The translations under genes were made by a program, and so were the position numbers. Of a stretch of DNA of 32,653 bases, positions 7,171-32,268 are shown one piece after another. The notes under the pieces were generated by a model. That model did no database searches. It saw nothing but the letters and a program-made list of their open reading frames with translations, and had not been told where the DNA came from. The first letter of the stretch is position 1. Each line of letters starts with the position of its first letter. The stretch is from Saccoglossus kowalevskii (Eukaryota > Hemichordata > Enteropneusta > Harrimaniidae): NCBI RefSeq assembly GCF_000003605.2, contig NW_003145211.1, forward strand, positions 1-32,653, read 5' to 3'.

Positions 7171-7177
7171 TACATTT

Positions 7178-12825: not shown

Positions 12826-12908
12826 GCTTAGTGTACATTTCAGTACATGGTTGTGTTTAGTTGCATGTATACCCTAGGCAGAGTGTACATTTCAGCACAA
12901 GATTTTGT

Positions 12909-13106: not shown

Positions 13107-13238
13107 AAGATTTTGTTTACCTGCATGTACACCCTAGGCATAGTTTACATTTCAGCACATGGTTGTGTTTACCTGCATGTATACCCTAGGCATAGTGTAC
13201 ATTTCAGTACATGGTTGTGTTTAGCTGCATGTATACCC

Positions 13239-13400
13239 TAGCATAGTGTACATTTCAGCACAAGATTGTGTTTACCTGCATGTACACCCTAGGCATAGTG
13301 TACATTTCAGTACATGGTTGTGTTTACCTGCATGTATACCCTAGGCATAGATTACATTTCAGCACATGGTTGTGTTTACCTGCATGTACACCCTAGGCAT
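13239..13400 (+). repeat. B-to-Q fusion with ten monomers deleted
   Basis: From TAGCATAG to CATAGATTAC is 107 bp (13239 to 13346), against 627 bp in the canonical unit at 23379, a loss of exactly 520 bp. The identical junction occurs at 30550-30657. Confidence 0.8.
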
Positions 13401-13687
13401 AGTGTACATTTCAGCACATGGTTGTGTTTACCTGCATGTACACCCTAAGCATAGTGTACATTTCAGCACATGGTTGTGTTTACCTGCATGTACACCCTAG
13501 GTATAGTGTACATTTCAGTACATGGTTGTGTTTACCTGCATGTATACCCTAGGCATAGTGTACATTTCAGCACATGGTTGTGTTTAGCTGCATGTATACC
13601 CTAGGCATAGTGTACATTTCAGTACATGGTTGTGTTTAGCTGCATGTATACCCTAGGCAGAGTGTACATTTCAGCACAAGATTTTGT

Positions 13688-13885
13688 TTACCTGCATGTA
13701 TACCCTAAGCATAGTGTACATTTCAGCACATGGTTGTGTTTACCTGCATGTATACCATAGGCATAATTTACATTTAAGCACATGTTTGTGTTTACCTGCA
13801 TGTATACCCTAGGCATAGTGTACATTTCAGCACATTGTTGTGTATACCTGCATGTACACCCTCGGCATAGTGTATATTTCAGCAC
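13688..13885 (+). repeat. L core, complete
   Basis: It lies only 779 bp (15 monomers minus one base) after the previous core. CTAAGCAT in its first monomer is private. The 51-mer is at 14018, and the monomer after it reads CAAAATTGTGTTT, as at 21532 and 24493. Confidence 0.85.
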
Positions 13886-14242
13886 AAGATTTTGTTTACC
13901 TGCATGTACACCCTAGGCATAGTGTACATTTCAGCACATGGTTGTGTTTACCTGCATGTATACCCTAGGCATAGTGTACATGTCAGTACATGGTTGTGTT
14001 TAGCTGCATGTATACCCTAGCATAGTGTACATTTCAGCACAAAATTGTGTTTACCTGCATGTACACCCTAGGCATAGTGTACATTTCAGTACATGGTTGT
14101 GTTTAGCTGCATGTATACCCTAGGCATAGTGTACATTTCAGCACAAGATTTTGTTTAGCTGCATGTATACCCTTGGCATATTGTACATTTCAGCACATGG
14201 TTGTGTTTACCTGCATGTATACCCTATGCATAGTGTACATTT

Positions 14243-14952
14243 CAGCACAAGATTTTGTTTAGCTGCATGTATACCCTACGCATAGTGTACATTTCAGCAC
14301 ATGGTTGTGTTTACCTGCATGTATACCATAGGCATAGTGTACATTTCAGCACATGGTTGTGTTTACCTGCATGTATACCCTAGGCAGAGTGTACATTTCA
14401 GCACAAGATTTTGTTTACCTGCATGTATACCCTAGGCATAGTGTACATTTCAGCACAAGATTTTGTTTACCTGCATGTATACCCTAGGCATAGTGTACAT
14501 TTCAGCACATGGTTGTTTTTACCTGCATGCATACCCTAGGCATAGTGTACATTTCAGCACATAGTTGTGTTTACCTGCATGTATACCCTAGGCAGAGTGT
14601 ACATTTCAGCACAAGATTTTGTTTACCTGCATGTATACCCTAGGCATAGTGTACATATCAGCACATGGTTGTGTTTACCTGCATGTATACGCTAGGCATA
14701 GTGTATATTTCAGCACATGGTTGTGTTTACCTGTATGCATACCCTAGGCATAGTGTACATTTCAGCACATTATTGTGTTTACCTGCATGTACACCCTAGG
14801 CATAGTGTACATTTCAGCACATGGTTGTGTTTAACTGCATGTATACCCCGGGCATAGTGTACATTTCAGCACATGGTTGTGTTTACATGCATTTACACCC
14901 TAAGCATAGGTGTACATTTCAGTACATGGTTGTGTTTACCCGCATGTATACC
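14243..14952 (+). repeat. P cassette, copy 2 (710 bp)
   Basis: It repeats P copy 1 at offsets of 2701, then 2597, then 2545 bp. The steps show the loss of two monomers and then one. Private changes are CTACGCATAG, TACCCCGGGC and a one-base insertion in GCATAGGTGTAC near 14909. Confidence 0.8.
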
Positions 14953-15235
14953 CTCGGCGTAGTGTACATTTCAGCACATGGCTGTGTTACCTGTATGTAT
15001 ACCCTAGGCATAGTGTACATTTCAGCACATGATTGTGTTTACCTGTATGTACACCCTAGGCATAGTGTACATTTCAGCACATGGTTGTGTTTACCTGTAT
15101 GTATACCCTAGGCATAATTTATATTTCAGCACATGGTTGTGTTTACCTGCATGTACACCCTCGGCATTGTGTACATTTCAGCACAAGGTTGTGTTTACCT
15201 GCATGTGCACCCTAGGCATAGTGTACATTTCAGCA
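14953..15235 (+). repeat. variant-rich bridge between P and N
   Basis: Several changes are not seen elsewhere: CTCGGCGTAG, GGCTGTGTTACC (one T lost), CATAATTTATATTT, CTCGGCATTGTG and CACAAGGTTG. With GTATGTA variants they open two overlapping + frames of 96 and 98 codons, the longest in the window. Their peptides are the usual repeat translation, so I do not call a gene. Confidence 0.7.
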
Positions 15236-15974
15236 CATGCTTGTGTTTACCTGTATGTATACCCTAGGCATAGTGTACATTTCAGCACATGGTTGTGTTT
15301 ACCTGCATGTACACCCTCGGCATAGTGTATATTTCAGCACATGGTTGTATTTACCTGCATGTGCACCCTAGGCATAGTTTACATTTCAGCACATGGTTGT
15401 GTTTACCTGCATGTATACCCTTGGCATAGTGTACATTTCAGTACATGGTTGTGTTTACCTGAATGTATACCCTAGGCATAGTTTACATTTCAGTACATGG
15501 TTGGGTTTACCTGTATGTATACCCTAGGCATAGTATACATTTCAGCACATGGTTGTGTTTACCTGCATGCATACCCTAGGAATAGTGTACATTTCAGTAC
15601 ATGGTTGTGTTTAGTTGCATGTATACCCTAGGCATAGTGTACATTTCAGCACATCGTTGAGTTTACCTTCACGTATACCCTAGGCATAGTGTACATTTCA
15701 GCACAAGATTTTGTTTACCTGCATGTATACCCTAGGCATAGTGTACATTTCAGCACATGGTTGTGTTTACCTGCATGTATACCCTAGGTATAGTGTACAT
15801 TTCAGTACATGGTTGTGTTTACCTGCATGTATACCCTAGGCATAGTGTACATTTCAGCACATGGTTGTGTTTAGCAGCATGTATACCCTAGGCATAGTGT
15901 ACATTTCAGTACATGGTTGTGTTTAGCTGCATGTATACCCTAGGCAGAGTGTACATTTCAGCACAAGATTTTGT
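15236..15974 (+). repeat. N cassette, copy 3
   Basis: It carries all N markers at a constant +9352 bp from copy 2 and has the same 739-bp length. TATACCCTAGG after CCTTCACG is restored to consensus (copies 1 and 2 have TACCTTAGG), and TTTAGCAGC near 15873 is private. The homology starts abruptly at CATGCTTGTG. Confidence 0.85.
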
Positions 15975-16172
15975 TTACCTGCTTGTATACCCTAGGCATA
16001 GTGTACATTTCAGCACATGGTTGTGTTTACCTGCATGTATACCATAGGCATAATTTACATTTAAGCACATGTTTGTGTTTACCTGCATGTATACCCTAGT
16101 TATAGTGTACATTTCAGCACATTGTAGTGTATACCTGCATGTACACCCTCGGCATAGTGTATATTTCAGCAC
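15975..16172 (+). repeat. L core, complete
   Basis: It has GCTTGTATACC like the other N-linked copy at 6623. CATTGTAGTG is shared only with 25648. CTAGTTATAG is private. The 51-mer is at 16305. Confidence 0.85.
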
Positions 16173-16304
16173 AAGATTTTGTTTACCTGCATGTACACCC
16201 TAGGCATAGTTTACATTTCAGCACATGGTTGTGTTTACCTGCATGTATACCCTAGGCATAGTGTACATTTCAGTACATGGTTGTGTTTAGCTGCATGTAT
16301 ACCC

Positions 16305-16560
16305 TAGCATAGTGTACATTTCAGCACAAGATTGTGTTTACCTGCATGTACACCCTAGGCATAGTGTACATTTCAGTACATGGTTGTGTTTAGCTGCATG
16401 TATACCTTAGGCATAGTGTACATTTCAGCACAAGATTGTGTTTAGCTGCATGTATACCCTAGGCATAGTGTACATTTCAGCACATGGTTGTGTTTAGCTG
16501 CATGTATACCCTAGGCATAGTGTACATTTCAGTACAAGATTTTGTTTAACTGCATGTATA
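16305..16560 (+). repeat. B-R cassette, 3' end lost
   Basis: The R marker is at 16530, 225 bp after TAGCATAG. ACCTTAGG at 16403 and CAAGATTGTG with TTTAGC are shared with 26076. CACGTGG and Q are absent: two GTACACC monomers lead straight to K. A one-base insertion gives TACCCCTAGG near 16612. Confidence 0.75.
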
Positions 16561-16738
16561 CCCTAGGCATAGTGTACATTTCAGCACATGGTTGTGTTTA
16601 CCTGCATGTATACCCCTAGGCATAGTGTACATTTCAGCACATGGTTGTGTTTACCTGCATGTACACCCTAGGCATAGTGTACATTTCAGCACATGGTTGT
16701 GTTTACCTGCATGTACACCCTAGGCATAGTGTACATTT

Positions 16739-17088
16739 CAGCACAAAATTGTATTTACCTGCATGTACACCCTAAGCATAGTGTACATTTCAGCACGTGG
16801 TTGTGTTTACCTGCATGTATACCCTAGGTATAGTGTACATTTCAGCACATGGTTGTGTTTACCTGCATGCATACCCTAGGCATATTGTACATTTCAGTAC
16901 ATGGTTGTGTTTACCTCCATGCATACCCTAGGCACAGTGTACATTTCAGCACATGGTTGTGTTTACCTTCATGTATACCCTACGCATAGTGTACATTTCA
17001 GTACATGGTTGAGTTTACCAACATGTATACCCTAGGCATAGTGTACATTTCAGCACATGGTTGTGTTTACCTGCGTGTATACTCTAGG
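16739..17088 (+). repeat. K cassette, CTACGC/CCAACATG subtype
   Basis: It has GGCACAG at 16930, then the subtype markers CTACGCATAG, GGTTGAGTTT and ACCAACATG. These occur only here, at 18333 and at 20572. CTAGGTATAG after CACGTGG is shared with 19015. Confidence 0.85.
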
Positions 17089-17206
17089 CATAGTGTACAT
17101 TTCAGCACATGGTTGTGTTTACCTGCATGTATACCCTAGGCATAGTGTACATTTCAGCACATGGTTGTGTTTAGCTGCATGTATACCCTAGGCATAGTGT
17201 ACATTT

Positions 17207-17362
17207 CAGCACAAGATTGTGTTTACCTGCATGCATACCCTGGGCATAGTGTACATTTCAGCACATGGTTGTGTTTACCTGCATGTATACCCTAGGCATA
17301 GTTTACATTTCAGCATATAGTTGTGTATACCTGCATGTATACCCTAGGCATAGTGTACATTT
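17207..17362 (+). repeat. S1 cassette (three monomers)
   Basis: It is the third copy of the trio, ending in CATATAGTTGTGTATACC. It joins directly to an L core, so the L first monomer is the monomer after CAGCATATAG. Confidence 0.75.
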
Positions 17363-17524
17363 CAGCACATGGTTGTGTTTACCTGCATGTATACCATAGG
17401 CATAATTTACATTTAAGCACATGTTTGTGTTTACCTGCATGTATACCCTAGGCATAGTGTACATTTCAGCACATTGTTGTATATACCTGCATGTACACCC
17501 TCGGCATAGTGTATATTTCAGCAC
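17327..17524 (+). repeat. L core, fused to S1
   Basis: All L markers from CCATAGGCATAATTTAC onward are present, with TTGTATATACC private. The antisense frame runs eight codons further (to 17303) because the S1 join removes the usual stop. No 51-mer follows: the array goes to a CCTCCATG monomer and S2. Confidence 0.8.
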
Positions 17525-17622
17525 AAGATTTTGTTTACCTGCATGTACACCCTAGGCATAGTGTACATTTCAGTACATGGTTGTGTTTACCTCCATGTAT
17601 ACCCTAGGCATAGTGTACATTT

Positions 17623-17894
17623 CAACACATGTTTGTGTTTAGCTGCATGTATACCCTAGGCATAGTGTACATTTCAGCACAAGATTGTGTTTACCTGCAT
17701 GCATACCCTGGGCATAGTGTACATTTCAGCACATGGTTGTGTTTACCTGCATGTATACCCTAGGCATAGTGTACATTTCAGCACATCGTTGAGTTTACCT
17801 GCATGTATACCCTAGGCATAGTGAACATTTCAGCACATTGTTGTGTATACCTGCATGTACACCCTCGGCATAGTGTATATTTCAGCACAAGATT
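17623..17894 (+). repeat. S2 cassette (about five monomers)
   Basis: It repeats the block at 3229 at +14394 bp, including CAACACATG, CATCGTTGAG and CATAGTGAAC. It is followed by CATAGTTTAC and a run of GTACACC monomers leading to K. Confidence 0.75.
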
Positions 17895-18090
17895 TTGTTT
17901 ACCTGCATGTACACCCTAGGCATAGTTTACATTTCAGCACATGGTTGTGTTTACCTGCATGTACACCCTAGGCATAGTGTACATTTCAGCACATGGTTGT
18001 GTTTACCTGCATGTACACCCTAGGCATAGTGTACATTTCAGCACATGGTTGTGTTTACCTGCATGTACACCCTAGGCATAGTGTACATTT

Positions 18091-18440
18091 CAGCACAAAA
18101 TTGTATTTACCTGCATGTACACCCTAAGCATAGTGTACATTTCAGCACGTGGTTGTGTTTACCTGCATGTATAGCCTAGGCATAGTGTACATTTCAGCAC
18201 ATGGTTGTGTTTACCTGCATGCATACCCTAGGCATATTGTACATTTCAGTACATGGTTGTGTTTACCTCCATGCATACCCTAGGCACAGTGTACATTTCA
18301 GCACATGGTTGTGTTTACCTTCATGTATACCCTACGCATAGTGTACATTTCAGTACATGGTTGAGTTTACCAACATGTATACCCTAGGCATAGTGTACAT
18401 TTCAGCACATGGTTGTGTTTACCTGCATGTATACTCTAGG
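18091..18440 (+). repeat. K cassette, CTACGC/CCAACATG subtype
   Basis: It lies 1352 bp (26 monomers) after the copy at 16739. GCATGTATACTC replaces GCGTGTATACTC at the end, and TATAGCCTAGG near 18173 is private. Confidence 0.85.
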
Positions 18441-18506
18441 CATAGTGTACATTTCAGCACATGGTTGTGTTTAGCTGCATGTATACCTTAGGCATAGTGT
18501 ACATTT

Positions 18507-18575
18507 CAGTACAAGATTTTGTTTACCTGCATGTATGTATACCCTATGCATAGTGTACATTTCAGCACGTGGTTG
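18507..18575 (+). repeat. R fragment with a 4-bp insertion
   Basis: CAGTACAAGATTTTG is followed by GCATGTATGTATACC, a tandem copy of GTAT that makes a 56-bp monomer, and then CACGTGG at 18566. The insertion shifts all later K spacings by +4, visible in the 836-bp GGCACAG interval from 18282 to 19118. Confidence 0.8.
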
Positions 18576-18652
18576 TGTTTACCTGCATGTATACCCTAGG
18601 CATAGTGTACATTTCAGCACATGGTTGTGTTTACCTGCATGCATACCCTAGG

Positions 18653-18926
18653 CATATTGTACATTTCAGTACATGGTTGTGTTTACCTGCATGTATACCC
18701 TAGGCATAGTTAACGTTTCAGCACATGGTTGTGTTTACCTGCATGTACACCCTAGGCATAGTGTACATTTCAGTACATGGTTGTGTTTACCTGCATGCAT
18801 ACCCTAGGCATATTGTACATTTCAGTACATGGTTGTGTTTACCTGCATGTATACCCTAGGCATAGATTACATTTCAGCACATGGTTGTGTTTACCTGCAT
18901 GTACACCCTAGGCATAGTGTACATTT
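18653..18926 (+). repeat. Q cassette lacking two monomers
   Basis: Only one GTACACC monomer precedes K, so its length is 274 instead of 378 bp. CATAGTTAACG at about 18706 is shared only with 20005. Confidence 0.8.
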
Positions 18927-19276
18927 CAGCACAAAATTGTATTTACCTGCATGTACACCCTAAGCATAGTGTACATTTCAGCACGTGGTTGTGTTTACCT
19001 GCATGTATACCCTAGGTATAGTGTACATTTCAGCACATGGTTGTGTTTACCTGCATGCATACCCTAGGCATATTGTACATTTCAGTACATGGTTGTGTTT
19101 ACCTCCATGCATACCCTAGGCACAGTGTACATTTCAGCACATGGTTGTGTTTACCTTCATGTATACCCTAGGCATAGTGTACATTTCAGTACATGGTTGT
19201 GTTTACCTCCATGTATACCCTAGGCATAGTGTACATTTCAGCACATGGTTGTGTTTACCTGCGTGTATACTCTAGG
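18927..19276 (+). repeat. K cassette, complete
   Basis: It has GGCACAG at 19118, the ordinary CCTCCATG form, and CTAGGTATAG after CACGTGG. A downstream stretch at 19320-19510 (CATATTG, CATAGATTAC, CATAGTTTAC, GTTTTTAGC) recurs in the same order at 28780-28975. Confidence 0.85.
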
Positions 19277-19532
19277 CATAGTGTACATTTCAGCACATGG
19301 TTGTGTTTACCTGCATGTATACCCTAGGCATATTGTACATTTCAGTACATGGTTGTGTTTACCTGCATGTATACCCTAGGCATAGATTACATTTCAGCAC
19401 ATGGTTGTGTTTACCTGCATGTACACCCTAGGCATAGTTTACATTTCAGCACATGGTTGTGTTTACCTGCATGTATACCCTAGGCATAGTGTACATTTCA
19501 GTACATGGTTGTTTTTAGCTGCATGTATACCC

Positions 19533-19871
19533 TAGCATAGTGTATATTTCAGCACAAGATTGTGTTTACCTGCATGTACACCCTAGGCATAGTGTACATT
19601 TCAGTACATGGTTGTGTTTAGCTGCATGTATACCCTAGGCATAGTGTACATTTCAGCACAAGATTTTGTTTAGCTGCATGTATACCCTAGGCATAGTGTA
19701 CATTTCAGCACATGGTTGTGTTTAGCTGCATGTATACCCTAGGCATAGTGTACATTTCAGTACAAGATTTTGTTTAACTGCATGTATACCCTAGGCATAG
19801 TGTACATTTCAGCACAAGATTTTGTTTACCTGCATGTATACCCTAGGCATAGTGTACATTTCAGCACTTGG
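19533..19871 (+). repeat. B-R cassette, complete, CACTTGG form
   Basis: TAGCATAG with GTGTATATTT is followed by the R marker at 19758 (225 bp) and CACTTGG at 19865 (107 bp). GTTTTTAGC just upstream is shared with 27826, 28971 and 31257. Confidence 0.85.
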
Positions 19872-19951
19872 TTGTGTTTACCTGCATGCATACCCTAGGC
19901 ATAGTGTACATTTCAGCACATGGATGTGTTTACCTGCATGCATACCCTAGG

Positions 19952-20329
19952 CATATTGTACATTTCAGTACATGGTTGTGTTTACCTGCATGTATACCCT
20001 AGGCATAGTTAACGTTTCAGCACATGGTTGTGTTTACCTGCATGTACACCCTAGGCATAGTGTACATTTCAGTACATGGTTGTGTTTACCTGCATGCATA
20101 CCCTAGGCATATTGTACATTTCAGTACATGGTTGTGTTTACCTGCATGTATACCCTAGGCATAGATTACATTTCAGCACATGGTTGTGTTTACCTGCATG
20201 TACACCCTAGGCATAGTGTACATTTCAGCACATGGTTGTGTTTACCTGCATGTACACCCTAGGCATAGTGTACATTTCAGCACATGGTTGTGTTTACCTG
20301 CATGTACACCCTAGGCATAGTGTACATTT
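19952..20329 (+). repeat. Q cassette, complete
   Basis: It has the full 378-bp form, with CATAGTTAACG replacing CATAGTTTACA. CATGGATGTG precedes it at 19919. Confidence 0.85.
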
Positions 20330-20679
20330 CAGCACAAAATTGTATTTACCTGCATGTACACCCTAAGCATAGTGTACATTTCAGCACGTGGTTGTGTTTA
20401 CCTGCATGTATACCCTAGGCATAGTGTACATTTCAGCACATGGTTGTGTTTACCTGCATGCATACCCTAGGCATATTGTACATTTCAGTACATGGTTGTG
20501 TTTACCTCCATGCATACCCTAGGCACAGTGTACATTTCAGCACATGGTTGTGTTTACCTTCATGTATACCCTACGCATAGTGTACATTTCAGTACATGGT
20601 TGAGTTTACCAACATGTATACCCTAGGCATAGTGTACATTTCAGCACATGGTTGTGTTTACCTGCGTGTATACTCTAGG
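20330..20679 (+). repeat. K cassette, CTACGC/CCAACATG subtype, complete
   Basis: It has GGCACAG at 20521 and CTACGC at 20572. It opens the full-length canonical HOR, and M follows 555 bp from its start. Confidence 0.85.
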
Positions 20680-20884
20680 CATAGTGTACATTTCAGCACA
20701 TGGTTGTGTTTACCTGCATGTATACCCTAGGCATAGTGTACATTTCAGCACAAGATTTTGTTTACCTGCATGTATACCCTAGGCATAGTGTACATTTCAG
20801 CACATGGTTGTGTTTACCTGCATGTATACCCTAGGCATAGTGTACATATCAGTACATGGTTGTGTTTAGCTGCATGTATACCCT

Positions 20885-21094
20885 ATGCATAATGTACATT
20901 TCAGCACAAGATTGTGTTTACCTGCATGTACACCCTATGCATTGTGTACCATTCAGCACATGGTTGTGTTTACCTGCATGTATACCCTAGGCATAGTGTA
21001 CATTTCAGCACATGGTTGTGTTTACCTGCATGTACACCCTAGGCATAGTGTACATTTCAGCACATGGTTGTGTTTACCTGCATGTATACCCTAG
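20885..21094 (+). repeat. M cassette, hybrid 3' part
   Basis: The first two monomers are typical, with TACCATTCAG a private change. The CTAGGTATAG and CAGTACATGG monomers are replaced by ordinary and GTACACC monomers. Length and spacing to L (293) are unchanged, which looks like gene conversion rather than deletion. Confidence 0.8.
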
Positions 21095-21177
21095 GCATAG
21101 TGTACATTTCAGCACATGGTTGTGTTTAGCTGCATGTATACCCTAGGCAGAGTGTACATTTCAGCACAAGATTTTCT

Positions 21178-21375
21178 TTACCTGCATGTATACCCTAGGC
21201 ATAGTGTACATTTCAGCACATGGTTGTGTTTACCTGCATGTATACCATAGGCGTAATTTACATTTAAGCACATGTTTGTGTTTACCTGCATGTATACCCT
21301 AGGCATAGGGTACATTTCAGCACATTGTTGTGTATACCTGCATGTACACCCTCGGCATAGTGTATATTTCAGCAC
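21178..21375 (+). repeat. L core, complete
   Basis: Private changes are GGCGTAATTT, CATAGGGTAC and, just upstream, GATTTTCTTTACC. The 51-mer is at 21508. Confidence 0.85.
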
Positions 21376-21507
21376 AAGATTTTGTTTACCTGCATGTACA
21401 CCCTAGGCATAGTTTACATTTCAGCACATGGTTGTGTTTACCTGCATGTATACCCTAGGCATAGTGTACATTTCAGTACATGGTTGTGTTTACCTGCATG
21501 TATACCC

Positions 21508-21846
21508 TAGCATAGTGTACATTTCAGCACAAAATTGTGTTTACCTGCATGTACACCCTAGGCATAGTGTACATTTCAGTACATGGTTGTGTTTAGCTGC
21601 ATGTATACCCTAGGCATAGTGTACATTTCAGCACAAGATTTTGTTTAGCTGCATGTATACCCTAGGCATAGTGTACATTTCAGCACATGGTTGTGTTTAG
21701 CTGCATGTACACCCTAGGCATAGTGTACATTTCAGTACAAGATTTTGTTTAACTGCATGTACATCCTAGGCATAGTGTACATTTCAGCACAAGATTTTGT
21801 TTACCTGCATGTATACCCTAAGCATAATGTACATTTCAGCACGTGG
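21508..21846 (+). repeat. B-R cassette, complete
   Basis: It has canonical spacings 225 and 107. The monomer after the 51-mer reads CAAAATTGTGTTT. GTACATCCTAGG and CTAAGCATAATG are private. Confidence 0.85.
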
Positions 21847-21926
21847 TTGTGTTTACCTGCATGTATACCCTAGGCATAGTGTACATTTCAGCACATGGTT
21901 GTGTTTACCTGCATGCATACCCTAGG

Positions 21927-22304
21927 CATATTGTACATTTGAGTACATGGTTGTGTTTACCTGCATGTATACCCTAGGCATAGTTTACATTTCAGCACAT
22001 GGTTGTGTTTACCTGCATGTACACCCTAGGCATAGTGTACATTTCAGTACATGGTTGTGTTTACCTGCATGCATACCCTAGGCATATTGTACATTTCAGT
22101 ACATGGTTGTGTTTACCTGCATGTATACCCTAGGCATAGATTACATTTCAGCACATGGTTGTGTTTACCTGCATGTACACCCTAGGCATAGTGTACATTT
22201 CAGCACATGGTTGTGTTTACCTGCATGTACACCCTAGGCATAGTGTACATTTCAGCACATGGTTGTGTTTACCTGCATGTATACCATAGGCATATTGTAC
22301 ATTT
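21927..22304 (+). repeat. Q cassette, full length, altered last monomer
   Basis: It has the 378-bp register. CATTTGAGTAC replaces CATTTCAGTAC at about 21945. The last monomer is CCATAGGCATATTG where GTACACC is expected, marking the join to a shortened K. Confidence 0.8.
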
Positions 22305-22550
22305 CAGTACATGGTTGTGTTTACCTCCATGCATACCCTAGGCACAGTGTACATTTCAGCACATGGTTGTGTTTACCTTCATGTATACCCTAGGCATAGT
22401 GTACATTTCAGTACATGGTTGTGTTTACCTCCATGTATACCCTAGGCATAGTGTACATTTCAGTACATGGTTGTGTTTACCTCCATGTATACCCTAGGCA
22501 TAGTGTACATTTCAGCACATGGTTGTGTTTACCTGCGTGTATACTCTAGG
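22281..22550 (+). repeat. K cassette, 5' truncated with a doubled monomer
   Basis: The CAAAATTG, CACGTGG and CATATTG monomers are missing. GGCACAG is at 22340. The CAGTACATGG/CCTCCATG monomer occurs twice in a row, a single-monomer tandem duplication. Confidence 0.8.
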
Positions 22551-22755
22551 CATAGTGTACATTTCAGCACATGGTTGTGTTTACCTGCATGTATACCCTA
22601 GGCATAGTGTATATTTCAGCACAAGATTTTGTTTACCTGCATGTATACCCTAGGCATAGTGTACATTTCAGCACATGGTTGTGTTTACCTGCATGTATAC
22701 CCTAGGCATAGTGTACATTTCAGTACAAGGTTGTGTTTAGCTGCATGTATACCCT

Positions 22756-22965
22756 ATGCATAATGTACATTTCAGCACAAGATTGTGTTTACCTGCATGT
22801 ACACCCTATGCATTGTGTACATTTCAGCACATGGTTGTGTTTACCTGCATGTACACCCTAGGTATAGTGTACATTTCAGTACATGGTTGTGTTTACCTGC
22901 ATGTATACCCTAGGCATAGTGTACATTTCAGCACATGGTTGTGTTTAGCTGCATGTATACCCTAG
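22756..22965 (+). repeat. M cassette
   Basis: It is the same subtype as 3004, with CAGCACATGG and TATACCC in the last monomers. CAGTACAAGG just upstream is private. Confidence 0.85.
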
Positions 22966-23048
22966 GCATAGTGTACATTTCAGTACATGGTTGTGTTTAG
23001 TTGCATGTATACCCTAGGCAGAGTGTACATTTCAGCACAAGATGTTGT

Positions 23049-23246
23049 TTACCTGCATGTATACCCTAGGCATAGTGTACATTTCAGCACATGGTTGTGT
23101 TTACCTGCAAGTATACCATAGGCATAATTTACATTTAAGCACATGTTTGTGTTTACCTGCATGTATACCCTAGGCATAGTGTACATTTCAGCACATTGTT
23201 GTGTATACCTGCATGTACACCCTCGGCATAGTGTATATTTCAGCAC
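23049..23246 (+). repeat. L core, complete
   Basis: GCAAGTATACC and, upstream, GATGTTGTTTACC are private. It is 1871 bp after the previous core. The 51-mer is at 23379. Confidence 0.85.
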
Positions 23247-23378
23247 AAGATTTTGTTTACCTGCATGTACACTCTAGGCATAGTTTACATTTCAGCACAT
23301 GGTTGTGTTTACCTGCATGTATACCCTAGGCATAGTGTACATTTCAGTACATGGTTGTGTTTAGCTGCATGTATACCC

Positions 23379-23717
23379 TAGCATAGTGTACATTTCAGCA
23401 CAAGATTGTGTTTACCTGCATGTACACCCTAGGCATAGTGAACATTTCAGTACATGGTTGTGTTTAGCTGCATGTATACCCTAGGCATAGTGTACATTTC
23501 AGCACAATATTTTGTTTAGCTGCATGTATACCCTAGGCATAGTGTACATTTCAGCACATGGTTGTGTTTAGCTGCATGTATACCCTAGGCATAGTGTACA
23601 TTTCAGTACAAGATTTTGTTTAACTGCATGTATACCCTAGGCATAGTGTACATTTCAGCACAAGATTTTGTTTACCTGCATGTATACCCTAGGCATAGTG
23701 TACATTTCAGCACGTGG
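23379..23717 (+). repeat. B-R cassette, complete
   Basis: It has canonical spacings 225 and 107. CATAGTGAACATT and CACAATATTTTG are private. Confidence 0.85.
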
Positions 23718-23797
23718 TTGTGTTTACCTGCATGTATACCCTAGGCATAGTGTACATTTCAGCACATGGTTGTGTTTACCTGCATGCATACCCTAGG

Positions 23798-24175
23798 CAT
23801 ATTGTACATTTCAGTACATGGTTGTGTTTACCTGCATGTATACCCTAGGCATAGTTTACATTTCAGCACATGGTTGTGTTTACCTGCATGTACACCCTAG
23901 GCATAGTGTACATTTCAGTACATGGTTGTGTTTACCTGCATGCATACCCTAGGCATATTGTACATTTCAGTACATGGTTGTGTTTACCTGCATGTATACC
24001 CTAGGCATAGATTACATTTCAGCACATGGTTGTGTTTACCTGCATGTACACCCTAGGCATAGTGTACATTTCAGCACATGGTTGTGTTTACCTGCATGTA
24101 CACCCTAGGCATAGTGTACATTTCAGCACATGGTTGTGTTTACCTGCATGTACACCCTAGGCATAGTGTACATTT
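23798..24175 (+). repeat. Q cassette, complete
   Basis: It is the reference form: CATATTG 23798, CATAGATTAC 24006, then three GTACACC monomers to K at 24176. Confidence 0.85.
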
Positions 24176-24240
24176 CAGCACAAAATTGTATTTACCTGCA
24201 TGTACACCTTAAGCATAGTGTACATTTCAGCACGTGGCTT
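24176..24240 (+). repeat. K start fused to L
   Basis: CAAAATTG and CACGTGG are followed at once by the L monomer CCATAGGCATAATTTAC, so the rest of K and all of M are deleted. ACACCTTAAGC and an extra C in GTGGCTTGTG are private. The same fusion point occurs at 26987. Confidence 0.8.
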
Positions 24241-24390
24241 GTGTTTACCTGCATGTATACCATAGGCATAATTTACATTTAAGCACATGTTTGTGTTTAC
24301 CTGCATGTATACCCTAGGCATAGTGTACATTTCAGCACATTGTTGTGTATACCTGCATGTACACCCTCGGCATAGTGTATATTTCAGCAC
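24193..24390 (+). repeat. L core, K-fused
   Basis: It is typical from CCATAGG on. The inserted C at the fusion shifts the antisense frame, which runs on into K (to 24175). The following 51-mer is at 24471, 81 bp after the end instead of 133, so one monomer is missing. Confidence 0.8.
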
Positions 24391-24470
24391 AAGATTTTGT
24401 TTACCTGCATGTACACCCTAGGCATAGTGTACATTTCAGCACATGGTTGTGTTTACCTGCATGTATACCC

Positions 24471-24809
24471 TAGCATAGTGTACATTTCAGCACAAAATTG
24501 TGTTTACCTGCATGTACACCCAAGGCATAGTGTACATTTCAGGACATGGTTGTGTTTAGCTGCATGTATACCCTAGGCATAGTGTACATTTCAGCACAAG
24601 ATTTTGTTTAGCTGCATGTATACCCTAGGCATAGTGTACATTTCAGCACATGGTTGTGTTTAGCTGCATGTACACCCTAGGCATAGTGTACATTTCAGTA
24701 CAAGATTTTGTTTAACTGCATGTATACCCTAGGCATAGTGTACATTTCAGCACAAGATTTTGTTTACCTGCATGTATACCCTAGGCATAGTGTACATTTC
24801 AGCACGTGG
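24471..24809 (+). repeat. B-R cassette, complete
   Basis: It has canonical spacings (R 24696, CACGTGG 24803). CACCCAAGGC and CAGGACATGG near 24530 are private. Q is missing afterwards: GTACACC monomers lead directly to K. Confidence 0.85.
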
Positions 24810-25007
24810 TTGTGTTTACCTGCATGTATACCCTAGGCATAGTGTACATTTCAGCACATGGTTGTGTTTACCTGCATGTACACCCTAGGCATAGTGTACA
24901 TTTCAGCACATGGTTGTGTTTACCTGCATGTACACTCTAGGCATAGTGTACATTTCAGCACATGGTTGTGTTTACCTGCATGTACACCCTAGGCATAGTG
25001 TACATTT

Positions 25008-25260
25008 CAGCACAAAATTGTATTTACCTGCATGTACACCCTAAGCATAGTGTACATTTCAGCACGTGGTTGTGTTTACCTGCATGTATACCGTAGGCAT
25101 AGTGTACATTTCAGCACATGGTTGTGTTTACCTGCATGCATACCCTAGGCATATTGTACATTTCAGTACATGGTTGTGTTTACCTCCATGCATACCCTAG
25201 GCACAGTGTACATTTCAGCACATGGTTGTGTTTACCTTCATGTATACCCTAGGCATAGTG
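25008..25260 (+). repeat. K cassette, 3' truncated
   Basis: It is complete through GGCACAG (25199) and CCTTCATG, then ordinary monomers replace CCTCCATG and GCGTGTATACTC. ACCGTAGGC is private. Confidence 0.8.
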
Positions 25261-25647
25261 TACATTTCAGCACATGGTTGTGTTTACCTGCATGTATACC
25301 CTAGGCATAGTGTACATTTCAGCACATGGTTGTGTTTACCTGCATGTATACCCTAGGCATAGTGTATATTTCAGCACAAGATTTTGTTTACCTGCATGTA
25401 TACCCTAGGCATAGTGTACATTTCAGTACATGGTTGTGTTTACCTGCATGTATACCCTAGGCATAGTGTACATTTCAGCACATGGTTGTGTTTACCTGCA
25501 TGTATACCCTAGGCATAGTGTACATTTCAGCACATGGTTGTGTTTACCTGCATGTATACCCTAGGCATAGTGTACATTTCAGTACATGGTTGTGTTTAGC
25601 TGCATGTATACCCTAGGCAGAGTGTACATTTCAGCACAAGATTTTGT
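25261..25647 (+). repeat. ordinary monomers between K and L
   Basis: These are about seven near-consensus monomers with one CAAGATTTTG and one GTGTATATTT, then the GCAGAGTG monomer that always precedes L. M is absent. Confidence 0.7.
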
Positions 25648-25845
25648 TTACCTGCTTGTATATCCTAGGCATAGTGTACATTTCAGCACATGGTTGTGTT
25701 TACCTGCATGTATACCATAGGCATAATTTACATTTAAGCACATGTTTGTGTTTACCTGCATGTATACCCTAGGCATAGTGTACATTTCAGCACATTGTAG
25801 TGTATACCTGCATGTACACCCTCGGCATAGTGTATATTTCAGCAC
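25648..25845 (+). repeat. L core, complete
   Basis: CATTGTAGTG is shared with 15975 at +9673 bp, and GCTTGTATATCC is private. The 51-mer is at 25978. Confidence 0.85.
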
Positions 25846-25977
25846 AAGATTTTGTTTACCTGCATGTACACCCTAGGCATAGTTTACATTTCAGCACATG
25901 GTTGTGTTTACCTGCATGTATACCCTAGGCATAGTGTACATTTCAGTACATGGTTGTGTTTAGCTGCATGTATACCC

Positions 25978-26218
25978 TAGCATAGTGTACATTTCAGCAC
26001 AAGATTGTGTTTACCTGCATGTACACCCTAGGCATAGTGTACATTTCAGTACATGGTTGTGTTTAGCTGCATGTATACCTTAGGCATAGTGTACATTTCA
26101 GCACAAGATTGTGTTTAGCTGCATGTATACCCTAGGCATAGTGTACATTTCAGTACATGGTTGTGTTTAGCTGCATGTATACCCTAGGCAGAGTGTACAT
26201 TTCAGCACAAGATTTTGT
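25978..26218 (+). repeat. B remnant returning to L
   Basis: TAGCATAG, CAAGATTGTG, ACCTTAGG (26076) and a second CAAGATTGTG match 16305-16450. It then jumps back to a GCAGAGTG monomer and a second L core, so L is locally duplicated (11 monomers, 571 bp). Confidence 0.75.
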
Positions 26219-26416
26219 TTACCTGCTTGTATACCCTAGGCATAGTGTACATTTCAGCACATGGTTGTGTTTACCTGCATGTATACCATAGGCATAATTT
26301 ACATTTAAGCACATGTTTGTGTTTACCTGCATGTATACCCTAGGCATAGTGTACATTTCAGCACATTGTTGTGTATACCTGCATGTACACCCTCGGCATA
26401 GTGTATATTTCAGCAC
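26219..26416 (+). repeat. L core, complete
   Basis: This is the tandem duplicate of the core at 25648, with the normal CATTGTTGTG rather than CATTGTAGTG. No 51-mer follows: CATGGATGTG at 26572 leads into Q. Confidence 0.85.
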
Positions 26417-26604
26417 AAGATTTTGTTTACCTGCATGTACACCCTAGGCATAGTTTACATTTCAGCACATGGTTGTGTTTACCTGCATGTATACCCTAGG
26501 CATAGTGTACATTTCAGTACATGGTTGTGTTTAGCTGCATGTATACCCTAGGCATAGTGTACATTTCAGCACATGGATGTGTTTACCTGCATGCATACCC
26601 TAGG

Positions 26605-26930
26605 CATATTGTACATTTCAGTACATGGTTGTGTTTACCTGCATGTATACCCTAGGCATAGTTTACATTTCAGCACATGGTTGTGTTTACCTGCATGTAC
26701 ACCCTAGGCATAGTGTACATTTCAGTACATGGTTGTGTTTACCTGCATGCATACCCTAGGCATATTGTACATTTCAGTACATGGTTGTGTTTACCTGCAT
26801 GTACACCCTAGGCATAGTGTACATTTCAGCACATGGTTGTGTTTACCTGCATGTACACCCTAGGCATAGTGTACATTTCAGCACATGGTTGTGTTTACCT
26901 GCATGTACACCCTAGGCATAGTGTACATTT
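26605..26930 (+). repeat. Q cassette lacking one monomer
   Basis: The CATAGATTAC monomer is deleted, so the length is 326 bp. The same deletion is seen in the copy at 29410. Confidence 0.8.
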
Positions 26931-27000
26931 CAGCACAAAATTGTATTTACCTGCATGTACACCCTAAGCATAGTGTACATTTCAGCACGTGGTTGTGTTT
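26931..27000 (+). repeat. K start fused to L
   Basis: CAAAATTG and CACGTGG join CCATAGGCATAATTTAC at the same point as at 24240, but without the extra C. Confidence 0.8.
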
Positions 27001-27144
27001 ACCTGCATGTATACCATAGGCATAATTTACATTTAAGCACATGTTTGTGTTTACCTGCATGTATACCCTAGGCATAGTGTACATTTCAGCACATTGTTGT
27101 GTATACCTGCATGTACACCCTCGGCATAGTGTATATTTCAGCAC
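26947..27144 (+). repeat. L core, K-fused
   Basis: Its antisense frame ends in K sequence. CCCTCGGC is used twice in succession, the second just after 27170. The 51-mer is at 27277, 133 bp after the end. Confidence 0.8.
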
Positions 27145-27276
27145 AAGATTTTGTTTACCTGCATGTACACCCTCGGCATAGTTTACATTTCAGCACATGG
27201 TTGTGTTTACCTGCATGTATACCCTAGGCATAGTGTACATTTCAGTACATGGTTGTGTTTAGCTGCATGTATACCC

Positions 27277-27615
27277 TAGCATAGTGTACATTTCAGCACA
27301 AGATTGTGTTTACCTGCATGTACACCCTAGGCATAGTGTACATTTCAGTACATGGTTGTGTTTAGCTGCATGTATACCCTAGGCATAGTGTACATTTCAG
27401 CAAAAGATTTTGTTTAGCTGCATGTATACCCTAGGCATAGTGTACATTTCAGCACATGGTTGTGTTTAGCTGCATGTATACCCTAGGCATAGTGTACATT
27501 TCAGTACAAGATTTTGTTTAACTGCATGTATACCCTAGGCATAGTGTACATTTCAGCACAAGATTTTGTTTACCTGCATGTATACCCTAGGCATAGTGTA
27601 CATTTCAGCACGTGG
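27277..27615 (+). repeat. B-R cassette, complete
   Basis: It has canonical spacings (R 27502, CACGTGG 27609). CAGCAAAAGATTTTG is shared with the copy at 32269. Confidence 0.85.
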
Positions 27616-27695
27616 TTGTGTTTACCTGCATGTATACCCTAAGCATAGTGTACATTTCAGCACATGGTTGTGTTTACCTGCATGCATACCCTAGG

Positions 27696-27825
27696 CATAT
27701 TGTACATTTCAGTACATGGTTGTGTTTACCTGCATGTATACCCTAGGCATAGTTTACATTTCAGCACATGGTTGTGTTTACCTGCATGTATACCCTAGGC
27801 ATAGTGTACATTTCAGTACATGGTT
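27696..27825 (+). repeat. Q cassette, truncated
   Basis: CATATTG and CATAGTTTAC are present, then the array jumps to a GTTTTTAGC monomer and a 51-mer at 27848. Confidence 0.7.
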
Positions 27826-27847
27826 GTTTTTAGCTGCATGTATACCC

Positions 27848-28058
27848 TAGCATAGTGTATATTTCAGCACAAGATTGTGTTTACCTGCATGTACACCCTA
27901 GGCATAGTGTACATTTCAGTACATGGTTGTGTTTAGCTGCATGTATACCCTAGGCATAGTTTACATTTCAGCACATGGTTGTGTTTACCTGCATGTATAC
28001 CCTAGGCATAGTGTACATTTCAGCACATGGTTGTGTTTACCTGCATGCATACCCTAGG
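27848..28058 (+). repeat. B remnant leading back to Q
   Basis: TAGCATAG with GTGTATATTT and CAAGATTGTG is followed by a CATAGTTTAC monomer and ordinary monomers. R and CACGTGG are absent. Confidence 0.65.
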
Positions 28059-28436
28059 CATATTGTACATTTCAGTACATGGTTGTGTTTACCTGCATGT
28101 ATACCCTAGGCATAGTTTACATTTCAGCACATGGTTGTGTTTACCTGCATGTACACCCTAGGCATAGTGTACATTTCAGTACATGGTTGTGTTTACCTGC
28201 ATGCATACCCTAGGCATATTGTACATTTCAGTACATGGTTGTGTTTACCTGCATGTATACCCTAGGCATAGATTACATTTCAGCACATGGTTGTGTTTAC
28301 CTGCATGTACACCCTAGGCATAGTGTACATTTCAGCACATGGTTGTGTTTACCTGCATGTACACCCTAGGCATAGTGTACATTTCAGCACATGGTTGTGT
28401 TTACCTGCATGTACACCCTAGGCATAGTGTACATTT
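28059..28436 (+). repeat. Q cassette, complete
   Basis: It has the 378-bp form. With the following K it repeats 18653-19276 but has two more GTACACC monomers and the ordinary CATAGTTTACA. Confidence 0.85.
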
Positions 28437-28740
28437 CAGCACAAAATTGTATTTACCTGCATGTACACCCTAAGCATAGTGTACATTTCAGCACGTGGTT
28501 GTGTTTACCTGCATGTATACCCTAGGCATAGTGTACATTTCAGCACATGGTTGTGTTTACCTGCATGCATACCCTAGGCATATTGTACATTTCAGTACAT
28601 GGTTGTGTTTACCTCCATGCATACCCTAGGCACAGTGTACATTTCAGCACATGGTTGTGTTTACCTTCATGTATACCCTAGGCATAGTGTACATTTCAGT
28701 ACATGGTTGTGTTTACCTCCATGTATACCCTAGGCATAGT
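28437..28740 (+). repeat. K cassette lacking the last monomer
   Basis: It has GGCACAG at 28628, 9510 bp after the copy at 19118. The GCGTGTATACTC monomer is deleted, which lowers the offset to 9458 bp downstream (19919 to 29377). Confidence 0.8.
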
Positions 28741-28990
28741 GTACATTTCAGCACATGGTTGTGTTTACCTGCATGTATACCCTAGGCATATTGTACATTT
28801 CAGTACATGGTTGTGTTTACCTGCATGTATACCCTAGGCATAGATTACATTTCAGCACATGGTTGTGTTTACCTGCATGTACACCCTAGGCATAGTTTAC
28901 ATTTCAGCACATGGTTGTGTTCACCTGCATGTATACCCTAGGCATAGTGTACATTTCAGTACATGGTTGTTTTTAGCTGCATGTATACCC

Positions 28991-29329
28991 TAGCATAGTG
29001 TATATTTCAGCAAAAGATTGTGTTTACCTGCATGTACACCCTAGGCATAGTATACATTTCAGTACATGGTTGTGTTTAGCTGCATGTATACCCTAGGCAT
29101 AGTGTACATTTCAGCACAAGATTTTGTTTAGCTGCATGTATACCCTAGGCATAGTGTACATTTCAGCACATGGTTGTGTTTAGCTGCATGTATACCCTAG
29201 GCATAGTGTACATTTCAGTACAAGATTTTGTTTAACTGCATGTATACCCTAGGCATAGTGTACATTTCAGCACAAGATTTTGTTTACCTGCATGTATACC
29301 CTAGGCATAGTGTACATTTCAGCACTTGG
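28991..29329 (+). repeat. B-R cassette, complete, CACTTGG form
   Basis: It is the counterpart of 19533-19871, with R at 29216 and CACTTGG at 29323. GTGTTCACC, CAAAAGATTG and CATAGTATAC nearby are private. Confidence 0.85.
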
Positions 29330-29409
29330 TTGTGTTTACCTGCATGTATACCCTAGGCATAGTGTACATTTCAGCACATGGATGTGTTTACCTGCATGCA
29401 TACCCTAGG

Positions 29410-29735
29410 CATATTGTACATTTCAGTACATGGTTGTGTTTACCTGCATGTATACCCTAGGCATAGTTTACATTTCAGCACATGGTTGTGTTTACCTGCA
29501 TGTACACCCTAGGCATAGTGTACATTTCAGTACATGGTTGTGTTTACCTGCATGCATACCCTAGGCATATTGTACATTTCAGTACATGGTTGTGTTTACC
29601 TGCATGTACACCCTAGGCATAGTGTACATTTCAGCACATGGTTGTGTTTACCTGCATGTACACCCTAGGCATAGTGTACATTTCAGCACATGGTTGTGTT
29701 TACCTGCATGTACACCCTAGGCATAGTGTACATTT
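29410..29735 (+). repeat. Q cassette lacking one monomer
   Basis: CATAGATTAC is deleted, as in the copy at 26605. CATGGATGTG precedes both, so the two share descent. Confidence 0.8.
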
Positions 29736-29830
29736 CAGCACAAAATTGTATTTACCTGCATGTACACCCTAAGCATAGTGTACATTTCAGCACGTGGTTG
29801 TGTTTACCTGCATGTATACCCTAGGCATAG
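29736..29830 (+). repeat. K start joined to M
   Basis: CAAAATTG, TAAGCAT and CACGTGG are present, then two ordinary monomers lead to M. The K-to-M distance is 191 bp instead of 555, a loss of seven monomers. Confidence 0.8.
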
Positions 29831-29926
29831 TGTACATTTCAGTACATGGTTGTGTTTACCTGCATGTATACCCTAGGCATAGTGTACATTTCAGTACATG
29901 GTTGTGTTTAGCTGCATGTATACCCT

Positions 29927-30136
29927 ATGCATAATGTACATTTCAGCACAAGATTGTGTTTACCTGCATGTACACCCTATGCATTGTGTACATTTCAGCA
30001 CATGGTTGTGTTTACCTGCATGTACACCCTAGGTATAGTGTACATTTCAGTACATGGTTGTGTTTACCTGCATGTATACCCTAGGCATAGTGTACATTTC
30101 AGCATATGGTTGTGTTTAGCTGCATGTATGCCCTAG
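29927..30136 (+). repeat. M cassette
   Basis: It is the typical form with CAGCATATGG and TATGCCC. L starts 293 bp after M starts. Confidence 0.85.
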
Positions 30137-30219
30137 GCATAGTGTACATTTCAGTACATGGTTGTGTTTAGTTGCATGTATACCCTAGGCAGAGTGTACA
30201 TTTCAGCACAAGATTTTGT

Positions 30220-30417
30220 TTACCTGCATGTATACCCTAGGCATAGTGTACATTTCAGCACATGGTTGTGTTTACCTGCATGTATACCATAGGCATAATT
30301 TACATTTAAGCACATGTTTGTGTTTACCTGCATGTATACCCTAGGCATAGTGTACATTTCAGCACATTGTTGTGTATACCTGCATGTACACCCTCGGCAT
30401 AGTGTATATTTCAGCAC
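30220..30417 (+). repeat. L core, complete
   Basis: It is typical. Just downstream GATTTTATTTACC, ACACCTTAGG and TTTACGTGC are private. The 51-mer is at 30550. Confidence 0.85.
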
Positions 30418-30549
30418 AAGATTTTATTTACCTGCATGTACACCTTAGGCATAGTTTACATTTCAGCACATGGTTGTGTTTACGTGCATGTATACCCTAG
30501 GCATAGTGTACATTTCAGTACATGGTTGTGTTTAGCTGCATGTATACCC

Positions 30550-30722
30550 TAGCATAGTGTACATTTCAGCACAAGATTGTGTTTACCTGCATGTACACCC
30601 TAGGCATAGTGTACATTTCAGTACATGGTTGTGTTTACCTGCATGTATACCCTAGGCATAGATTACATTTCAGCACATGGTTGTGTTTACCTGCATGTAC
30701 ACCCTAGGCATAGTATACATTT
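30550..30722 (+). repeat. B-to-Q fusion with ten monomers deleted
   Basis: From TAGCATAG to CATAGATTAC is 107 bp, the same junction as at 13239. It ends at the diverged island. Confidence 0.8.
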
Positions 30723-31087
30723 CAGCACAAGGTTGTGAGTACGTGCATGCATACCTTGGGCATAGTGTACATTTCAGGACACGGAGCTGTTTACCTGGAG
30801 GTATACCCTAGGCATAGTTAACATTTCAGTACGTGGTGGAGTGTGCCTGTATGTATTCCGTAGGCATTGTCCACATTTCAGCACATGGTTGTGTTTAGGG
30901 GCATGCATACCCTAGGCATAGTGTACATTTCCACACATGGTTATGTTTAGTTGCATGTATACCCTAGGCATAGTGTACATTTCGGCACATCCAGGAGTGT
31001 ACCTGCAAAGTATACGTTAGGCATAGTGTACATTTCGGCACAAGATTGTGTTTCCCTGCATGTATACCCTAGGCATAGTGTACATTT
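30723..31087 (+). repeat. island of seven strongly diverged monomers
   Basis: CAG-equivalent positions (30723, 30775, 30827, 30879, 30931, 30983, 31036, 31088) keep the 52-bp phase, with one 53-bp unit. The bases differ from consensus at many sites: GTGAGTACGTGC, CACGGAGCTG, GTGGAGTGTGCC, GTCCACATTT, CACATCCAGGAG, GCAAAGTATACG and others. Several changes create CpG. No cassette assignment is possible. Divergence is far above that of any neighbour and falls back to normal after 31088. Confidence 0.9.
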
Positions 31088-31491
31088 CAGCACATGGTTG
31101 TGTTTACCTGCATGTATACCCTAGGTATAGTGTACATTTCAGTACATGGTTGTGTTTACCTGCATGTATACCCTAGGCATAGTGTACATTTCAGCACATG
31201 GTTGTGTTTACCTGCATGTATACCCTAGGCATAGTGTACATTTCAGTACATGGTTGTTTTTAGCTGCATGTATACCCTTAGCATAGTGTATATTTCAGCA
31301 CAAGATTGTGTTTTACTTGCATGTACACCCTAGGCATAGTGTACATTTCAGTACATGGTTGTGTTTACATGCATGTATACCCTAGGCATAGTTTACATTT
31401 TCAGCACATGGTTGTGTTTACATGCATGTATACCTTAGGCATAGTGTACATTTCAGCACATGGTTGTGTTTACCTGCATGCATACCCTAGG
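31088..31491 (+). repeat. ordinary monomers with several one-base insertions
   Basis: It includes CTAGGTATAG, GTTTTTAGC with a CCCTTAGCATAG relative of the 51-mer at about 31268, GTGTTTTACTTGC near 31311 and CATTTTCAG near 31397. These insertions open a 78-codon + frame that I do not consider a gene. Confidence 0.75.
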
Positions 31492-32135: not shown

Positions 32136-32268
32136 AAGATTTTGTTTACCTGCATGTACACCCTAGGCATAGTTTAAAATTTCAGCACATGGTTGTTTTT
32201 ACCTGCATGTATACCCTAGGCATAGTGTACATTTCAGTACATGGTTGTGTTTAGTTGCATGTATACCA

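What the first reader, a model, noticed from the sequence alone, without database searches (positions are those of the whole stretch)
20330..24175. A 38-monomer (1975-bp) higher-order repeat can be reconstructed from constant marker spacings
Seven independent intervals recur to the base across the window: K-M 555, M-L 293, L end-51-mer 133, 51-mer-R 225, R-CACGTG 107, CACGTG-Q 87, Q-K 378. They close into a ring of 37 x 52 + 51 bp. K at 20330 and 24176 are 3846 bp apart, which is two rings minus exactly two monomers. Higher-order organisation on so short a monomer, with so many members per unit, is notable.
Basis: seen in the sequence. Interest (0 to 1): 0.75.

Follow-up and report, generated by a model that had tools for sequence, protein, structure and literature searches.

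The report
Scrambled 38-unit order in 52-bp satellite
A stretch of short tandem DNA repeats in an invertebrate genome follows a hidden circular order of about 38 repeat variants, cut up by deletions and duplications; this is a known kind of repeat evolution, in a well-resolved example.

Summary
The window is one whole contig made of a 52-bp satellite: 628 monomers, in a 572-Mb assembly. Monomer order is far from random. An unbiased cyclic fit levels off at 38-39 monomers; its best 38-monomer seed is 19546-21520, exactly 1975 bp. Fit cost is 804, against 1567-1587 in four shuffles. A ring learned on half of the window predicts the other half. However, only 1 of 22 spacings between 51-mers is 1975 bp (median 1247). 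The array is a mosaic with about 66 jumps along the ring. The satellite's core was found on only two other contigs: one mostly follows a second order of unsettled length, mixed with pieces of ring A; the other holds the array edge beside ordinary sequence. Best explanation: a higher-order satellite eroded by unequal exchange; this mechanism is inferred. No function is shown. HORs of 52 and 59 monomers are in print, so this is a known kind.

The parts
1..32653 (+). 52-bp satellite array filling the whole contig (628 full monomers plus 8 bases)
   Evidence: TRF period 52, 628.1 copies, 1-32648; wrap-around alignment: 596 monomers of 52, 23 of 51, 8 of 53, 1 of 56 bp; contig C3604 is 32653 bp
19546..21520 (+). 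the only spacing between 51-mers that is one full ring A: 38 monomers, 1975 bp
   Evidence: (best seed of the unbiased 38-monomer fit)
21521..23391 (+). next ring A copy, 36 monomers (three lost, one gained)
   Evidence: 51-mer spacing 1871; jumps at 22249 and 22405
24176..24193 (+). marker K, second of the pair, 3846 bp on
21470..21520 (+). 51-mer (one G lost in CCTAGGCATAG): one of 23 monomers of 51 bp in the window, 18 of them at ring position 37
11590..12421 (+). 16 monomers that fit the second order (ring B) better than ring A
   Evidence: joint two-ring path; coordinates worked out
14187..15070 (+). 17 monomers of ring B type, including a 703-bp exact match to contig C494
   Evidence: (14200 in window = 8399 in C494); coordinates worked out
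30719..31083 (+). seven divergent monomers inside the array, 4-12 substitutions each from the consensus
   Evidence: counted on the printout

Best explanation
This is non-coding satellite DNA with an imperfect higher-order organisation. Shown: about 38 (or 39) variants of a 52-bp monomer stand in a fixed cyclic order (ring A). Most of the array is made of collinear pieces of that ring, joined mostly in frame with the monomer. Another contig of the same satellite mainly uses a second order (ring B), and pieces of both orders occur on both contigs. Inferred: a block of diverged monomers was amplified as a unit into a higher-order repeat. Later unequal exchange between misaligned copies (sister chromatids or homologues), or equivalent in-register deletion and duplication, removed or doubled whole monomers, so that few copies still hold all 38. 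Larger segments were then duplicated and spread some of the junctions. No molecular function is shown or needed. It may be heterochromatin near a gene-bearing region.
For: Cyclic fit: cost drops to 804 at ring size 38 and is then level (39: 802; 40: 825; 41: 799; 42: 799), against 1567-1587 for 4 shuffles. Ring learned on the second half predicts the first half: 1.548 per monomer for R=38 and 1.503 for R=39, against at least 2.742 for 30 order-permuted rings of each of those sizes. The raw ring fitted to the other 590 monomers costs 1004, against at least 1752 in 300 permuted rings. Monomers at the same ring position differ by 1.62 of 52 bases on average, at different positions by 4.73 (positions were assigned by similarity, which helps this contrast). 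Register: 61 of 66 junctions in the window have no monomer of odd length (53 or 56 bp) beside them. Ten of 76 junction types recur, and 15-to-32 occurs in both contigs. Locus and direction: 865 of 865 core matches (up to 3 mismatches) lie on three contigs, all on the + strand, and C3178 ends with the array edge.
Against: Junctions are not placed where the two partners are more alike than elsewhere on the same diagonal (3.89 against 4.06 mismatches, p 0.17), and hybrid monomers gain little over the null (0.58 against 0.42); both would be expected of homology-driven exchange if the tests had power. Similarity does not fall with distance (Spearman 0.02, p 0.10, over 5258 pairs that are not independent), so purely local exchange does not explain the pattern. 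Wrap-around steps in the fit (21) are no more frequent than in shuffles (1-25). At least three of the ten recurring junction types come from one block that is present three times. On C494 ring A beats 500 permuted rings in cost (746 against at least 834) but not in number of jumps (56; permuted mean 62, least 42). Long-read assembly of such arrays can itself drop or add units, and no reads were available.
Confidence: 0.8

Rival explanations
1. Amplification by extrachromosomal circles: ring A (and B) were copied by rolling-circle replication and reinserted, which gives whole rings, and the jumps arose later.
For: A closed monomer order fits; similar copies lie far apart (lags 16838, 25003 and others); no decay of similarity with distance.
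Against: Only one full-length spacing of 22; rolling circles predict long runs of complete rings. Nothing here separates this from old unequal exchange.
Confidence: 0.25
2. The jumps are largely assembly errors: the true array is a regular 38-mer HOR whose copies were collapsed or misjoined.
For: The three contigs are unjoined, two of them satellite nearly from end to end; arrays of near-identical units are often misassembled (general knowledge); 5 junctions sit beside odd-length monomers.
Against: Junction 15-to-32 occurs twice in the window and once in C494. 61 of 66 junctions have no odd-length monomer beside them, but collapse would also be in register, so this does not decide. Ring positions are unevenly kept (8-25 copies each), which random collapse would not favour (inference).
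Confidence: 0.2
3. There is no higher-order unit at all: random local segmental duplications of an unordered monomer field give the recurrent runs.
For: No enrichment at lag 38; many different lags between best matches; larger rings still gain slowly (731 at 56).
Against: A ring of 38-39 fits both halves of the window and beats permuted order by a wide margin; improvement is steep up to 38 and nearly stops there.
Confidence: 0.05
4. The satellite is a functional centromere or pericentromere whose order is kept by selection, for example by a protein that binds one variant at intervals.
For: Higher-order satellites are typical of primate centromeres (PMC8122249, passages).
Against: The assembled amount found is only about 47 kb in 572 Mb; array edge about 5.5 kb from a channel-like coding stretch; no chromatin data; order is poorly kept.
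Confidence: 0.12

Closest known systems
Alpha-satellite HORs of primates, including 52-mer and 59-mer and 'cascading' HORs
   Same: Diverged monomers in a fixed order, units far more alike than neighbouring monomers (PMC8122249 passages); subfragments and repeated monomer types within copies (PMC12385485 abstract); a 59-mer in orangutan (PMC11276891, listing only).
   Different: Monomer 52 bp instead of about 171 bp; monomers at different ring positions already about 91% alike; one full-length spacing only; no centromere evidence.
Human beta satellite (68-bp monomer)
   Same: Short monomer in tandem arrays of several kb (passages of PMC7767330 and PMC8122249). HOR units of about 2.0-2.5 kb are recalled from Waye and Willard 1989; no call showed this.
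   Different: Sequence relation not tested.
Chenopodium 40-bp satellite family with HOR units up to 332 bp
   Same: Higher-order units built on a monomer of similar length, several HORs formed side by side (PMC6429384 abstract and passages).
   Different: Units of about 3-8 monomers by length, not 38.
Meloidogyne satellite HORs with long and short variants
   Same: HOR variants that differ by loss of a monomer, monomers shuffled between arrays (PMC3694981 passages).
   Different: HORs there mix different satellite families with conserved junction motifs; here all monomers are one family.

Membership tests
Satellite higher-order repeat (HOR) | Head-to-tail array of one monomer family | tested here: met
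   628 monomers, period 52; 865 core matches forward, 0 reverse
Satellite higher-order repeat (HOR) | Recurrent order of distinct monomer variants | tested here: met
Satellite higher-order repeat (HOR) | Corresponding monomers of different units much more alike than monomers within a unit | tested here: met
   1.62 against 4.73 mismatches of 52
Satellite higher-order repeat (HOR) | Units of constant length repeated in tandem (regular HOR) | tested here: not met
   1 of 22 spacings is 1975 bp; spacings 11 to 62 monomers; lag 38 z -0.1
Centromeric satellite | Occupied by centromeric histone, located at primary constrictions | not testable with these tools
   no chromatin or cytogenetic data
Centromeric satellite | CENP-B box or similar motif | not tested
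   no motif scan was run
Protein-coding tandem repeat | Open frame through the repeats | tested here: not met
   31 ORFs of 60 aa or more, longest 98 aa in 32653 bp, table 11
Structured RNA repeat | Match to an Rfam family or unusually stable fold | tested here: not met
   0 Rfam matches at gathering threshold; DNA fold of two consensus monomers z -0.26; no RNA fold was run

The most novel reading that the evidence does not exclude
In a deuterostome lineage for which two narrow literature searches listed no HOR satellite (probably a hemichordate), two competing higher-order orders, one of about 38 monomers and one of about 35-38, occupy one locus, recombine in register and are homogenised across at least 30 kb without any decline with distance; such a locus would be a natural record of how one HOR replaces another.
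Probability: 0.3. Interest if true: 0.45.

Novelty: new member of a known kind. Interest (0 to 1): 0.3.

Why it matters
It shows that a large higher-order order can be recovered on a monomer of only 52 bp even when plain autocorrelation sees nothing at that period, because whole-monomer losses and gains blur the lag. The same one-direction satellite holds two orders and mosaic pieces of both, which makes it a compact record for testing models of unequal exchange. It does not reveal a new kind of element.

Tried and rejected
Plain autocorrelation: unsuited, since each 51-mer shifts phase and the broad hump near 1195 probably reflects phase. Monomer lag spectrum: nothing at 38, modest peaks elsewhere (43, z 4.7; 66, z 5.5). 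Rings taken raw from single blocks: best cost levelled off around 35-39 without fixing the size, and longer blocks did better again, so the consensus ring was re-estimated. Cost plus 8 per ring monomer also favours 38 (1108, next 39 with 1114), but the penalty was my choice. Held-out data favour 39 slightly over 38 (1.503, 1.548), with 42 close (1.567). Size of ring B is not settled: on C494 cost plus 8R is 671-693 for the sizes tried from 30 to 38, least at 37, and the lag spectrum there peaks at 46 and 100, with a lesser peak at 35. Hybrid-monomer and junction-homology tests gave no clear support for homology-driven exchange. Distance decay: none. tRNA, ORF and Rfam scans: nothing that explains the array. 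Coding and RNA readings rejected.

Organism: not named by the tools. The 17037-bp mitochondrial contig has nad5 next to cob, nad6 and cox1 on the other strand and no AGG in the frames of cox1, cob, nad1, nad2 and nad5 (genes other than cox1 read off the translations by eye). A paper notes nad5-cob adjacency in Xenoturbella, two hemichordates and, separately, birds (PMC2697986 passages), hence 'probably hemichordate'. Lancelets of the genus Asymmetron have another order (PMC2034537 passages). The small-subunit rRNA search did not complete and was dropped. Literature searches for hemichordate satellites or HORs listed 3 papers and 1 paper, none on the subject by title; this is a narrow search.

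Rows dropped: the last 8 bases of the window; end fragments of C494 (272 of 274 monomers kept). Monomers with more than 5 mismatches were left out of consensus building, not out of the fit. Repeated junctions were counted once in the homology test (57 distinct junctions).

Full report
What is there. The window is the complete contig C3604 (32653 bp) of a 572-Mb assembly of 4830 contigs. It is one satellite array, period 52, from base 1 to 32648. A wrap-around alignment gives 628 full monomers: 596 of 52 bp, 23 of 51, 8 of 53 and 1 of 56, with 190 distinct sequences counting the last 8-base fragment. The longest ORF is 98 aa; there are no tRNAs and no Rfam matches at gathering threshold.

Checking the observation. 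Several of the intervals recur often, but K-M 555 follows only 2 of 16 K and Q-K 380 only 5 of 40 Q. The stretch 19546-21520 is 38 monomers and 1975 bp. The next copy has 36 monomers, threaded as loss of three and gain of one, which explains 'two rings minus two monomers'.

Is the order more than chance? Yes. There are 88 collinear runs of eight or more monomers with at most one mismatch each, against none in 20 shuffles. The next monomer type is far more predictable than in shuffles (1.67 against 3.36 bits). Threading all 628 monomers on the raw 38-ring costs 1004, against 1985-2011 in three shuffles. For the 590 monomers outside the reference copy the cost is 1004 in true order and at least 1752 over 300 permuted rings.

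Is the ring 38? Twenty-one ring sizes from 14 to 56 were tried with many seeds and a re-estimated consensus. Cost falls, with small reversals, from 1451 (14) to 841 (37) and 804 (38), then stays level: 802 (39), 825 (40), 799 (41), 799 (42); larger rings gain slowly (789 at 44, 731 at 56). Four shuffles give 1567-1587. Jumps are 69, against 86-110 in the shuffles; wrap-arounds (21, against 1-25) say nothing. Trained on the second half and tested on the first, R=38 costs 1.548 per monomer and R=39 1.503, against 1.605 at 37, 1.646 at 40 and 1.567 at 42, with permuted rings near 2.9-3.0. So 38 or 39 is best supported.

But the physical unit is not constant. Spacings between successive 51-mers are 11 to 62 monomers, median 1247 bp, with 1975 bp once in 22. 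The monomer lag of 38 is at the shuffle mean (z -0.1), and 1975 is no local peak at base level. It refutes a regular 1975-bp HOR, not the cyclic order.

Two orders. Contig C494 (14168 bp) is satellite from base 9 to its end. It fits ring A poorly (746 with the raw ring, 692 with the re-estimated one; 500 permuted raw rings at least 834, but with a least jump count of 42 against 56 for the true order), though ring A pieces are present. A second ring of 35 monomers taken from C494 and re-estimated on it costs 434 there and 2153 on the window. A wider seed search gives 412 at 35, against 649-672 in three shuffles. With both rings allowed, the window is 95% A and 5% B (66 jumps, 0.75 mismatches per monomer), and C494 is 32% A and 68% B (23 jumps, 0.57 mismatches). 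Ring B's length is not settled: larger rings up to 38 fit somewhat better (371 at 38), and with a penalty of 8 per monomer the sizes from 30 to 38 lie at 671-693. The longest exact match between the two contigs is 703 bp.

Where it lies. Allowing three mismatches in a 32-base core pattern, 865 matches exist in the whole assembly, all forward. The window has 598, C494 has 262 and the last 10 kb of C3178 has 5, which add up to 865. More diverged copies would be missed. C3178 is 167195 bp long; its array starts within its last 285 bp or so, next to ordinary sequence. The same direction in all three is compatible with one locus, but the contigs are not joined and I cannot show it. A stretch matching Pfam Ion_trans_2 (412 codons, E 4.5e-25) ends about 5.5 kb before the array; it reads to me like a two-pore potassium channel, which no call named.

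How it most likely arose. Same-position monomers differ by 1.62 bases of 52, different positions by 4.73: the hallmark of a higher-order repeat, with the caveat that positions were assigned by similarity. Of 65 jumps within ring A over both contigs, 43 skip 18 monomers or fewer, and 22 skip 19 or more, equivalent to short duplications. Of 66 junctions in the window, 61 have no odd-length monomer beside them, so most breaks keep the 52-bp register, as expected of pairing between repeats. Ten of 76 junction types are seen more than once. Of these, 14-to-6, 11-to-22 and 23-to-27 come from a block present three times that does not follow ring A, and 15-to-32 occurs in both contigs. This fits unequal exchange or an equivalent process followed by larger duplications, the classical model of Smith (passages of PMC8122249). 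Two direct tests of homology at the junctions were not significant or weak, and similarity does not fall with distance. The mechanism is therefore inferred, and circles or old amplification stay possible.

What it is not shown to be. No chromatin, expression or cytogenetic evidence was available. A centromeric role is open but unsupported: the assembled satellite is about 47 kb, though arrays are often under-assembled.

Comparison. HORs with many members are known: a 52-mer alpha-satellite HOR and 'cascading' HORs with subfragments (PMC12385485 abstract) and a 59-mer in orangutan (PMC11276891, listing only). HOR units on a 40-bp monomer are known in Chenopodium (PMC6429384 passages), and HOR variants lacking a monomer in nematodes (PMC3694981 passages). 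This array is a further member of that kind, with a short monomer, a large unit and heavy erosion.

Verdict. Interest is moderate to low.

Noticed in passing
L035 and L036 (contig C494, 14168 bp): A second contig of the same satellite follows mainly another monomer order (ring B, length not settled, about 35-38 monomers), mixed with pieces of ring A.
   Followed up: partly
L037:9715-10000 (end of contig C3178): Edge of the satellite array beside ordinary sequence, with a channel-like coding stretch (Pfam Ion_trans_2) at L037:2951-4189.
   Followed up: partly
4161-4680, 5824-6343, 15176-15695: A block that does not follow ring A in order (threaded only as short pieces) occurs three times (lags 1663 and 11015); the longest exact repeat in the window, 593 bp at 4455 and 6118, overlaps it.
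   Followed up: partly
30719-31083: Seven strongly diverged monomers in an island near the contig end; real old monomers or poor consensus cannot be told apart.
   Followed up: no
2652, 14863, 16578, 18503, 24224, 30979, 31292, 31397, 32126: Nine monomers of 53 or 56 bp; five of the 66 ring junctions have such a monomer beside them. Whether that is more than chance was not tested.
   Followed up: no
L039 and L040 (contig C4830, 17037 bp): Mitochondrial genome with nad5-cob adjacent, nad6 and cox1 on the opposite strand and nad2 before nad1 (genes read by eye): a rearranged deuterostome-type order, probably hemichordate.
   Followed up: partly
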